Of a DNA stretch of 64,000 nt, positions 46,241 to 56,682 are shown in pieces. The notes beneath the pieces were generated by a model. That model searched no databases. It was not told where the DNA came from and was given only the letters and a program-made list of their open reading frames with translations. Position numbers and translations under genes: made by a program. The number at the start of each line of letters is the position of its first letter. The first letter of the stretch is position 1. The DNA is from Pestalotiopsis fici W106-1 (lineage: Eukaryota > Ascomycota > Sordariomycetes > Amphisphaeriales > Sporocadaceae), in contig NW_006917095.1 in the NCBI RefSeq assembly GCF_000516985.1, positions 931,449-995,448 of the forward strand. The letters are read 5' to 3'.

Positions 46241-46559
46241 ATGTCTTCCACCGACTCTCTATTCTCGGGGTAAGTAAAATCAACACCCAACGTATCGCAA
46301 CAATTTCTTTGCGAATAATCGTCAATTAATTCCATTCTCCAGCCAATGCCCTTCCAAGCCAGCCCATGCCTATTCTAGCATGTCCAGTGGCAGTTCCTCC
46401 GACTTGTCGTCCGAGCGCGTGAATTCCTTCTATCACTCGTCGGCTACTACTGGCGCTATTGTGTCTTCCGGCACTTCAAGTACAACCTCTCCTCAACAGG
46501 CCGAGCAAAACATGACGGCGCACCTAGACGGCATCATGGACCGTCTGTTCAAGAAATAG
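46241..46559 (+). CDS. Small two-exon protein, family member A (81 aa)
   Basis: Exon 1 is 46241-46269 (29 nt), exon 2 is 46343-46559, with a phase-2 intron falling inside a Gly codon. The protein starts MSSTDSLFSGQCPSKP, is rich in Ser and Thr in the middle, and ends MTAHLDGIMDRLFKK. The end aligns with the C-terminal core of members B, C and D (M-A-x-K-I-x-x-I-M-x-P-F), and RVNSFYHSS sits where they have RL-x-SYL. It lacks the DGNR motif, so it is the most diverged copy. No signal peptide, membrane segment or known domain. I do not recognise the family; the paralogy is seen directly in the sequence. Confidence 0.65.
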
Positions 46560-48615
46560 CACGCAATGGCATACGACGCTGCTTTCTGGCCAAGCTGCCA
46601 TGTTCTTGTTGAAAATTGGGCACGGAAGGATGCGATTTGTGGGGAGTTTGTGAAGCTGTAACATATTGTACGACCTAGTCACGTTCTTGTACGATACATT
46701 TGGGATGGATTTCTTAATTTCTTGGTTGTCTTATTTATTTATTCCATTCTAATGGAAGTATTATTATGTGATGGACTCAATCTGGTATCTCATTCTCGTA
46801 TTCTAGTTTGCAAACGTGAAGCATTGCATGGCGAATTCGACCTCCCGCCTGGGTAATAATTGAAACGCACCTACTCTTTACTGCTGTCAATCGTCTCAAA
46901 CCCTCAAAAGTCAAGGGGGTGGAAGAATTTGGTGCAAACTTGGCACGGTGACGTGAAAAGTAAAAATCATGCGACCGCAATCGTCACAAAGCAGAAGATC
47001 AGCATAACGCTTTCACGCAAGTTCCTCTTTTCGGACCATGCAAATGCTCTGTTTGCGACAAGCGTCATGTAACTACCCGGCGTCCCACGTCTCGAAAACC
47101 ATGGCGAGTCCGCTTCTTTCTAAGCGAAGCGGACGGCCTGTGGGCTCCGGTCGACACGACGACTCTTCGGCTTCCCGCAGCGCAACAGTGTCCGCCCCGA
47201 AGAAGAGCGCTGGAAGCGCCCGAGTGCCTTTGCAACGGTAGCGTGCAGCGTCTTCGGCCGATTGCATAATCATGGCAGATTTATTTGGTTGGGACAGGGT
47301 TTTCATTGGTTCGTGGCATACCTGAGGTTGTGTTATATGCTGCGTCTTGCTGCTCCACGACCACAAGATACGCGATTAGAGTTTTTGAGAATCATTCGTG
47401 TATTGACGCCATTGGTCAATAAGATTCATGTGGATATTATTCGGGAACTTGCTGGTTCATTGTTACGCAAAGTTGCTTTGTAATGCCTGATTCAAGCTTG
47501 TTAGCATGCTTTTCAGCTTCTCCTCGCATACGATGATCTGCTACTGAGATGCTCACTCTTCGATAGACGTCATTCTCGAGGATTCTTTTGGTGAATGGAT
47601 CCAGTGGAAAATCTGCCAAGTCTTTCATACCATCATGTACTCTGCCTGTGGGCTGGACATTGAACTTTCCCATGTCTCGTAGATCGTAGATATCCTATGA
47701 GCATCGTCATTTATTGATATCTGGTAATGTTATTCGAGATTACAAATGGATGGTTTGAGTCTTCAATTAATCGTGGTCTCCATGGCAAAGTTTCCACAAG
47801 AAGCTCTATCATTTTTCTACCACCCAAACGAACCTAATTTTACGCCTGCCAGAATTTCGGGAGAAAGAACAGCATTTCTGGAACGCCAGCTTTTTTTTTT
47901 TGTCAGATTAGCAAGTTCTTAATTACCCCTTCCATGATTTTCCTGCTTATTGGGGGTAGAACTGCCAAAAAGGGCCAATTACGGGCTTCAATGGCTGTAC
48001 TCGGTAGAGTCGCAAACAGCTCGCACTGGGGCATCGAGATGGACATTTATGATGACAGACCAGGTCTCCAGGTGACTGTAGTATCCTCAATCTATCATAT
48101 ACGGGGCGAGGGCAAGTTTGACGCTAAGAAGGATGACTGGATCTGACGAAAGCTTGATGGGCAAACACAAGGTGCAGACTAAACAGATGCAGTCATTCTC
48201 CGTTCTGAGCCAACTTGAATGATGGAGTATTCCAAGGACGCACATGAAACAAACGAGAGTCAGAACAGCCGTCCACAAACCCAAGCACGATATGAGGCCA
48301 GAGTGGCACTCATTATTGACATGCTGAGGACTAATGTATAGATGATACATGTGACAATTGATGAGGTTGATTATACCGAGCATTACCTAATTTCATTGGC
48401 TTGCAAGTAAACTCCGAACGCTAGGTAATTAGAATTATGCCGAGCCAAGATGAGGTTCCTGGTGTTGGTCGGGCAGGACAAGTCCGGAAAGGACACGTGC
48501 TCACTATCTACACCCCTCTGCGGTTGCCCATAGCAGCTAACCTAGTGTCTATCCGCATCCAAGATGTAAGCTTAAAGTGACATATTCTCGGCGAACCACT
48601 TTACCTAATCTAGGT
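46560..48615. other. Gene-poor region with a possible gene relic
   Basis: About 2 kb. A short + strand frame at 47101-47241 has GC-rich third positions (MASPLLSKRSGRPVG) but no support. A possible relic on the - strand is listed separately. Confidence 0.4.
47437..47812 (-). pseudogene. Possible small gene or relic, unknown family
   Basis: Pieces 47812-47744 and 47694-47437 join across a 49-bp GT-AG intron in phase 0 to give 108 aa, starting MIELLVETLPWRPRLIED and continuing DIYDLRDMGKFNVQPTGRVH, then DLADFPLDPFTKRILENDVY. The frame is open upstream of the ATG too, and an adjacent frame reads NAVLSPEILAGVKL, suggesting a remnant of a longer, frameshifted gene. The composition looks coding, but I recognise no domain. 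Confidence 0.3.
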
Positions 48616-48624
48616 ACAATAGAA

Positions 48625-49151
48625 GGCTCCCAATACATCGACGGGGCCCCGTTGATTTAATATCGACGGACCCGTCGATATTATATAAGCGTTATTTTAT
48701 AGCGCTCTATAGCGCTCTACAGCGTTCTGTGTCAGGGCATACTGCTACCACTATACGATAATGGCTAAAAAGCATACTCGCAATCGTTGGGAAACGATCA
48801 CAAACTGGGACCTATATACCCACGGGATTGGGACGGTGCCATATAGTATCTGCTATAACAATTTGCGTATTACGATTCTTTTCCTTTTCGCATTATAACC
48901 ATTTTGTAACCATTATTTGTGGTTATTATTTATGGCCATTATCTATGGCCATTAAAAAGGAAACGCCAAAGCCTATGATTAAGGCACAAATTCCTATCGC
49001 TGCTATGCACAACGCTATAAAGCGCTGTAAAAAGTAGCAGAACGCTGTAGAGCGCTGTAGAGCGCTGTAGAGCGCTATAAAATAACGCTTACATAATATC
49101 GACGGGTCCATCGATATTAAATCAACGGGGCCCCGTCGATGTATTGGGAGC
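48625..49151. mobile_element. MITE with about 105-bp terminal inverted repeats and 9-bp target duplication
   Basis: The element begins GGCTCCCAATACATCGACGG and ends in its inverse. The inverted repeats run about 105 bp with very few mismatches. Inside each are nested palindromes (AATATCGACGG...CCGTCGATATT and the GGGGCCCC core) and 10-bp AGCGCTCTAC units whose number differs between ends. Both flanks carry ACAATAGAA (48616-48624 and 49152-49160), a perfect 9-bp target-site duplication, which suggests a Mutator-like transposase. The interior has two short frames, 48761-48898 (MAKKHTRNRWETITNWDLYT start) and 48945-49037 (KPMIKAQIPIAAMHNAIKRC end), which could be the two ends of a deleted transposase gene. 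The element itself is non-autonomous. Confidence 0.92.
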
Positions 49152-49160
49152 CACAATAGA

Positions 49161-54918: not shown

Positions 54919-55051
54919 TTCCCACAATTATTTTCCTCATTGTGCTTGATGATTATTATGCTTGCAGCAGCTCAACACACTTGCATTGACTTTTGGTGTG
55001 TTTTCCCACATGTATTTTCCTCATCGTGCTTGATGATTATTATGCTTGCAG
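54919..55051. repeat. Diverged 49-bp direct repeat pair
   Basis: 54919-54967 and 55003-55051 match at about 46 of 49 positions (shared core TTTTCCTCAT...GTGCTTGATGATTATTATGC). The start-to-start distance is 84 bp. A shorter CTTGCAGCAGCT is also repeated after the second copy. Confidence 0.85.
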
Positions 55052-56134
55052 TACTTGCAGCAGCTGTGTCGCGGCTGCGATGGCGGGGGAGCTCTTTCCC
55101 TTTTTCCCACCATAATAAGCTTGGGGATCTACATTTTTATTTTGCGGAGTTGAGCATTGCTCCATGTAGGTAGGTATATTACCATAGGCTGGAATTGGGC
55201 TGAGATATATTCTCTGGGTTTTTACGAAGGACGGATATAGTAACATTCATGTTGTTTTGTGGTGTCATGAGATGCCGTCTCATACCATACCTAGACATTG
55301 CGACACCTGACGCCCGTGACGCCCGGTTCACTTGATTATCAACTCATTGCGAGAAGATAGGTATCTTGGAGAATGACCCTAAACGGGATGCAAATGTGTC
55401 GAGTATCCTCCAAGTCTCGCGGATCGGTGTGTACCTGCCATGGACTATGCACCTTGCACGCGCCTGGCCGCCTCTTTTCCATTGCCCACATCCACTTCCT
55501 CCTGGGTCTCGGCACAGTTCCCTTTGGGAGCCCTGGCAGACGCTCTTGCAAGGGTTGGAACGGAACGAGGGAGGGAGGAGCTGCGCGCCAGTAGACTACA
55601 TAGTAAAACTGCTATATCCATGGTCCGACCCCACGGGTATGCTTGGCACCCTTGTACAGTACGTAGGTCCGTACTCGACCTACTTGCTGCTGGTCTGGCG
55701 CTCATGCACTGAGCATGTCCGTCATCGTCCCACACGTAGGAGTGAGGGTGGAGAGATAACACTATTGATTGGCCGCCCTGGTAATTCCACTCTGTATCCC
55801 ATCATGTCGATGTGACATGGGAAAAGCTCTCAAATTTTGAAAATGCTGGAATTGCGCAGAAAACAACCAAAAGCATGAAATATAACAACAAATCGGGCTC
55901 TGCACCACGCTCGCGTGACAATACAATCTGGTACTCATGGTTACCTTGAGAATACCCCATGTGCTCGTGGATGATTGACCCTGTTTGAATGATATTCCAC
56001 ACATGATTCATACTCGTAGGCAGGTATCCTCGGTGTACAACAGTTCGTCGTTTTCATATATTTGAGCATTAAGGAAAGGTTTCGCATGTCCGTCAAAAGG
56101 TTGCCTTATTATGCTGGTCGTCACTATGGACATC

Positions 56135-56142
56135 CTATAAAG
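56135..56142 (+). promoter_or_regulatory. TATA-like box of small-protein gene D
   Basis: CTATAAAG, about 227 bp upstream of the ATG at 56362, with a CT-rich leader. Confidence 0.4.
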
Positions 56143-56361
56143 TAGGATTGATTTCCTGCTGTCACTTCTGTCCTTCGTTCCGTCTTGAGTTCTCAAGCAT
56201 TCTCTTCTTCTTCAATTCGACACACATTTATTTTGCACGTCCCTAGTCTCCAGATACTATAATATATTGTCCTATACAACATACTGCTTTCCGGCGGGAA
56301 TACTTCTATTTCCTCTTCTTAAACCTTCCATACCCTTTCGCTAAAGTCACTAAAACCAACC

Positions 56362-56682
56362 ATGCCCTCTTATATTTTAAGGTTCTCGCCCTGCCTCTTT
56401 TCTCTCTTTTCTCTCTTTTCTCTCTTTTCTCTTTTGTAACTGATATTTGATCTCTGTAGAACTCAAGGGTCCTTATCCGGCCCTGCTACAGCTCACCAAG
56501 AGCCCCTTCGTACACGGCGGTTAGATCGCTACCTCGAAGAACCAATTTCAGACGGAAATCGCTCGGTGATGTTGCTCAACCAGCCGGCGACGACATCCGA
56601 CAACAGTATCAAGAAGTTAGCCGAATCTAAGATGGCAATCAAGATCGACGGTATCATGAAGCCTTTCAACAAGACTGGCTGA
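56362..56682 (+). CDS. Small two-exon protein, family member D (80 aa)
   Basis: Exon 1 is 56362-56381 (20 nt, the same length as in C), exon 2 is 56460-56682; the phase-2 intron splits an Arg codon. The intron contains a CTCTTTT tandem repeat (56395-56435) that may act as a polypyrimidine tract. It starts MPSYILRTQGSLSGPATAH. The core is LRTRRLDRYLEEPISDGNRS, then KKLAESKMAIKIDG and IMKPFNKTG at the end. The DGNR and M-A-x-K-I-x-x-I-M-x-P-F motifs match B and C. No signal peptide or known domain. Function unknown. Confidence 0.72.

What the first reader, a model, noticed from the sequence alone, without database searches (positions are those of the whole stretch)
46241..56682. Undescribed four-member family of small two-exon genes
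Four + strand genes (46241, 50507, 52591, 56362) encode 80-89 aa proteins. Each has a first coding exon of only 20-32 nt, a phase-2 intron of 55-78 bp, and one longer exon. B, C and D share RL-x-x-YL-x-E-x-x-x-DGNR-x-V and end with K-M-A-x-K-I-x-x-I-M-x-P-F; A keeps the end but not DGNR. The match holds only when spliced, and the unspliced frames are unrelated, which argues against chance. No signal peptide or known domain is visible. The genes occupy an otherwise almost empty 10 kb, so this looks like a lineage-specific expanded family.
Basis: partly seen in the sequence, partly recalled or inferred. Interest (0 to 1): 0.88.

Follow-up and report, generated by a model that had tools for sequence, protein, structure and literature searches.

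The report
Small unannotated fungal gene family
A plant-dwelling fungus carries at least six small, related, mostly unannotated genes of unknown function, found so far in two closely related genera; the finding is real but of modest interest.

Summary
The window is from Pestalotiopsis fici W106-1: gene A, spliced as proposed, equals PFICI_07620, on a contig of the same length. B, C and D are clear paralogues with the stated exons, introns and phase. The family is larger: E and F lie in tandem on another contig. F equals PFICI_06940, and N. clavispora has relatives of both with consecutive gene numbers. A belongs distantly: 0 of 5000 shuffles reach its profile score. Similarity was found only in coding sequence, and codon position 3 varies most. 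One argument fails: the shared motifs lie wholly in exon 2, so the match does not depend on splicing; splicing supplies the start codon. B-E were not found in the protein database. No known family matched: Pfam scanned for all six, PHROGs for all but E, NCBIfam and PDB sequences for B-D only. The predicted shape, at low confidence, is two helices joined by the GNR segment. Best reading: a lineage-restricted family of small intracellular helical proteins, probably docking on a larger partner. Function is inferred; expression of B-E is undemonstrated.

The parts
46241..46269 (+). gene A, coding exon 1
   Evidence: spliced product identical to PFICI_07620
46270..46342 (+). gene A, phase-2 intron, 73 bp, donor GTAAGT, no CTRAY branch string
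46343..46559 (+). gene A, coding exon 2 with TAG; divergent member
   Evidence: 13.6 bits, 0 of 5000 shuffles reach it
48625..49152 (.). fold-back repeat element (104-nt arms, 96% complementary) between A and B; not part of the gene family
50507..50538 (+). gene B, coding exon 1
50539..50593 (+). gene B, phase-2 intron, 55 bp, donor GTATCG, branch CTAAC (a phase-1 alternative with donor 50604 also exists)
50594..50825 (+). gene B, coding exon 2 with TAG
52591..52610 (+). gene C, coding exon 1
52611..52671 (+). gene C, phase-2 intron, 61 bp, donor GTACTT, branch CTAAC
52672..52921 (+). gene C, coding exon 2 with TGA
54529..54628 (.). run of N, probably an assembly gap; could hide sequence
56362..56381 (+). 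gene D, coding exon 1
56382..56459 (+). gene D, phase-2 intron, 78 bp, weak donor GTTCTC, branch-like CTGAT
56460..56682 (+). gene D, coding exon 2 with TGA

Best explanation
This is a small gene family of pestalotioid fungi with at least six copies in P. fici: A-D in this window, and E and F in tandem on another contig. Each copy has a short first exon, a phase-2 intron and one longer exon encoding a conserved body. The body is predicted as a helix, a linker carrying [D/H/N]-G-N-R-x-V, and a second helix. Shown: homology of B-F, distant homology of A, similarity found only in coding sequence with most change at codon position 3, and an intron near the start in phase 2 in the models of all six. 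Inferred: the proteins are soluble and intracellular, and work by docking onto a larger partner through the GNR linker and the second helix, as small adaptors or regulators, with variable N-termini and duplicated copies giving different expression or affinity. Which partner, and when they are expressed, is unknown. I hold the family claim at about 0.9 and the docking mechanism at about 0.25; the score below is for the whole.
For: Own-genome matches among B-F; exact agreement of the spliced A and F with records PFICI_07620 and PFICI_06940. N. clavispora g13828 shares the exon-1 start MASSQNT with F, which supports that splice. g13827 and g13828 have consecutive numbers and contigs of the same length, 38,531, and pair with E and F in the tree at 87/87 and 85/88, below the strong mark. 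B-C: 34/20/50 variable sites at codon positions 1/2/3, p=0.0015; E-F: 40/26/51, p=0.018. dN below dS in all ten pairs of B-F over the full alignment. No similarity between flanks or introns at E 0.1 or better, plus strand, 800 bp up and 500 bp down. Two long helices in both models.
Against: No expression data could be read. B-E were not found in the protein database. Donors of B, C and D are weak. The codon-position bias over B, C and D together is not significant by chi-square (p=0.069; pos3 over pos2 p=0.013), nor over B-F (p=0.15), and weak in the C-terminal block; protein-guided alignment favours it. Helix 1 beats shuffles in amphipathicity at under 0.05 in 0 of 8 proteins, helix 2 in 3 of 8. 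pTM is only 0.29 and 0.44, and no PDB fold matched at 0.001.
Confidence: 0.6

Rival explanations
1. B, C, D and E are decaying duplicates; only A and F are working genes, and the array is a relic.
For: B-E not found in the protein database; weak donors in B, C and D; E has lost much of the C-terminal motif.
Against: All exon-2 frames are intact; B-C and E-F differ mostly at codon position 3; dN 0.18 against dS 0.73 in the B-C core. N. clavispora has an annotated relative of E.
Confidence: 0.2
2. They are small secreted proteins acting outside the cell, effector-like.
For: Small, diverging, tandem, lineage-restricted as far as searched, in a plant-associated fungus; a LysM-domain frame lies nearby.
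Against: No hydrophobic N-terminal stretch is visible by eye; 0-3 cysteines per protein; hydrophilic overall. No secretion predictor was run.
Confidence: 0.1
3. A is not a family member but an unrelated Ser-rich small gene that happens to sit beside B-D.
For: A lacks GNR, has a very long branch (6.26), and a genome search with A finds none of B-F.
Against: 0 of 5000 shuffles reach its profile score; among 2111 scored frames it is the best non-member, 13.0 against 6.3 bits. Same intron phase and a Gly at the junction, as in B and C.
Confidence: 0.2
4. Chance or a mobile-element fragment.
For: A fold-back element lies between A and B.
Against: Family similarity was found in coding sequence only, and 5 clear copies exist in two places; relatives are annotated in another genus.
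Confidence: 0.03

Closest known systems
PFICI_06940 and PFICI_07620 (hypothetical proteins, P. fici W106-1); G7054_g13827 and G7054_g13828 (N. clavispora)
   Same: These are members: F and A themselves, and the apparent orthologues of E and F.
   Different: Annotated only as hypothetical proteins; B, C, D and E were not found in the protein database as far as searched.
Small fungal stress or conidiation proteins such as Hsp9/Hsp12, Grg1/CCG-1, CON-6, CON-10 (recalled)
   Same: Similar size, soluble, helical or disordered (recalled).
   Different: No match to any Pfam family at its curated cut-off; motifs differ (recalled).

Membership tests
pestalotioid GNR family (defined here) | conserved body with GNR-x-V in one exon | tested here: met
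   B-F of P. fici; g13827 and g13828 have the motif, their exons were not seen
pestalotioid GNR family (defined here) | GNR motif in gene A | tested here: not met
   A has a gap there; placed as a distant relative by profile only
pestalotioid GNR family (defined here) | short exon 1 and phase-2 intron | tested here: met
   models of all six; A and F match public records; the B-E models rest on sequence alone, and B and E have alternatives
any Pfam family, including Hsp9/Hsp12, Grg1, CON-6, CON-10 (names recalled) | profile match at the curated cut-off | tested here: not met
   best E 0.016 (P0003, 15.5 bits against 22.3) and 0.17 (D, 12 against 26.2)
secreted effectors | signal peptide | not tested
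   no predictor available; none visible by eye

The most novel reading that the evidence does not exclude
A new class of small intracellular fungal regulator whose output in the B-D copies is gated by splicing: weak donors keep the intron in, and since the exon-2 frames of B and C have no start codon upstream of the core, protein appears only when splicing is switched on.
Probability: 0.08. Interest if true: 0.6.

Novelty: new member of a known kind. Interest (0 to 1): 0.3.

Why it matters
Small lineage-restricted gene families are easily missed by annotation, as four of the six copies here appear to be. A set of paralogues with a shared intron phase and two named relatives in another genus gives a profile that can recover missed copies and makes the family testable. 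No broader principle is changed.

Tried and rejected
Protein search with C alone found nothing; with A-D only A; a denser design with F plus fragments of E, D and B found P0002-P0005. Weak hits of A (C8, E 0.12, in what looks by eye like a carbonic anhydrase frame), B (C9, E 1.64) and P0003 (C9, E 2.17) were judged chance. No shared upstream word exceeded the null. PDB sequence hits for the B-D profile (best E 1.1, ribosomal L18 and a designed protein) and fold hits (best E 4.4) were rejected. PHROGs gave one hit, D at E 0.23. Literature: PFICI_07620, 0 papers; small or lineage-specific fungal genes, 15 of 200 papers listed and 12 of 60; conidiation-specific small proteins, 4 of 4. By title and start of abstract none is on this family; the unlisted papers were not seen.

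Papers: PMC4320822, passages from one 'find'. PMC8539907, listing and start of abstract. Others, listings with starts of abstracts.

Full report
Source. The window is G000:C5:931449-995448 of a 51.7 Mb, 20-contig genome. Gene A, spliced, is letter for letter the 81-aa record PFICI_07620 of Pestalotiopsis fici W106-1, from a contig of 4,007,484 bases, the length of C5. The identification rests on that and on F below, whose record gives the length of C4.

Observation. The proposed models are reproduced for A-D: 81, 87, 89 and 80 aa, exon 1 of 29, 32, 20 and 20 nt, introns of 73, 55, 61 and 78 bp, all phase 2. B, C and D share both motifs. In the whole genome C finds B at 2.1e-13 and D at 3.4e-8. 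The motifs lie wholly in exon 2, so they are seen without splicing. Splicing is still needed for a start upstream of the body: in B and C the exon-2 frame has no Met before the C-terminal part, in D the first Met comes just after the first motif, and in E and F it lies inside it; in A a Met at residue 35 of the frame could serve. A generic two-exon model is easy to draw: of 75 background frames 41 allow one, 8 with a branch-site string, 1 with a consensus donor as well; for A-D 4, 3 and 0 of 4. B also has a phase-1 alternative, and E has models from other start codons. Stronger support comes from the exact agreement of A and F with public records, from exon-1 letters shared by F and its N. clavispora relative, and from phase 2 in all six chosen models.

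More copies. D finds two further places on contig C4 (E 5.3e-5 and 0.0127), confirmed by searches with those copies. E runs from C4:3090540 to 3090281 and F from 3093703 to 3093348, both on the minus strand (computed). F is PFICI_06940. N. clavispora g13828 (78% to the F piece used) and g13827 (48% over 76% of it) have consecutive numbers and contigs of the same length, so they appear to be neighbours; they pair with F and E in the tree, though no branch reaches the strong mark. P0004 is a record from a 786-base contig without a named organism; its first residues look like read-through of the intron end (by eye), so it is not taken as evidence of expression. Further searches with g13827 and g13828 added no copy. 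B-E were not found in the protein database. Limits: C alone was searched in full; the search with A-D uses at most 100 words; the last one held only pieces of E, D and B; and gene models outside the length limits would be missed.

Gene A. Against a profile of eight family rows without A, A scores 13.6 bits; 0 of 5000 shuffles reach it, and among 2111 scored frames of the 2599 held the next non-member has 6.3 (A's frame: 13.0). With B-F alone the A frame scored 9.2 bits, E 0.17, again the best non-member. Against: no GNR, a branch of 6.26, and a genome search with A finds none of B-F. I take A as a distant member, about 0.8.

Selection. Similarity between copies at E 0.1 or better was found only in coding sequence. 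Codon position 3 varies most: B-C 34/20/50 (p=0.0015), E-F 40/26/51 (p=0.018), B-C-D 47/34/56 (p=0.069), B-F 54/42/62 (p=0.15). dN is below dS in all ten pairs over the full alignment; in the B-C core it is 0.18 against 0.73, and many dS values are saturated. This favours coding constraint without being strong for every copy.

Anatomy and mechanism. No Pfam family at its curated cut-off for A-F, no NCBIfam family for exon 2 of B, C or D, and no PHROG below E 0.1 for A-D, F and g13827. E was scanned against Pfam only; NCBIfam and PDB sequences were tried with B-D only. Two AlphaFold models of B's exon 2 give helices at 16-32 and 51-74 around the GNR linker (pTM 0.29 with 3 rows, 0.44 with 8); nothing in the PDB matched at 0.001. 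Helix 2 beats shuffles in amphipathicity at under 0.05 in B, E and A (3 of 8); helix 1 in 0 of 8. I infer a small soluble adaptor that docks through the linker and helix 2. This is a guess from anatomy, at about 0.25.

Setting. The two loci have different neighbours among the frames scanned: LysM, PD40 and CID frames and a PPR-like one below cut-off near A-D; an alpha-L-rhamnosidase-like frame, an MFS frame and an F-box-like one below cut-off near E-F. Inside the A-D region four frames reach 120 aa; three were scanned against Pfam and none matched, the fourth, at 50225-50641, was not scanned. TATA-like strings upstream of the genes are visible but were not tested against chance; no upstream word is shared beyond the null.

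Verdict. A real but modest finding: an undescribed, apparently lineage-restricted small gene family, larger than reported, with no function tested.

Noticed in passing
48625-49152: Fold-back element with 104-nt arms (96% complementary); a genome search with it gave 69 matches, its own included, on many contigs, so it looks like a multicopy non-autonomous repeat.
   Followed up: partly
54919-55051: A 49-nt direct repeat, two copies 84 bases apart, 94% identical.
   Followed up: no
43282-43827: Frame with a LysM domain (E 5.3e-6).
   Followed up: no
54529-54628: 100 N in the array; may hide further sequence.
   Followed up: no
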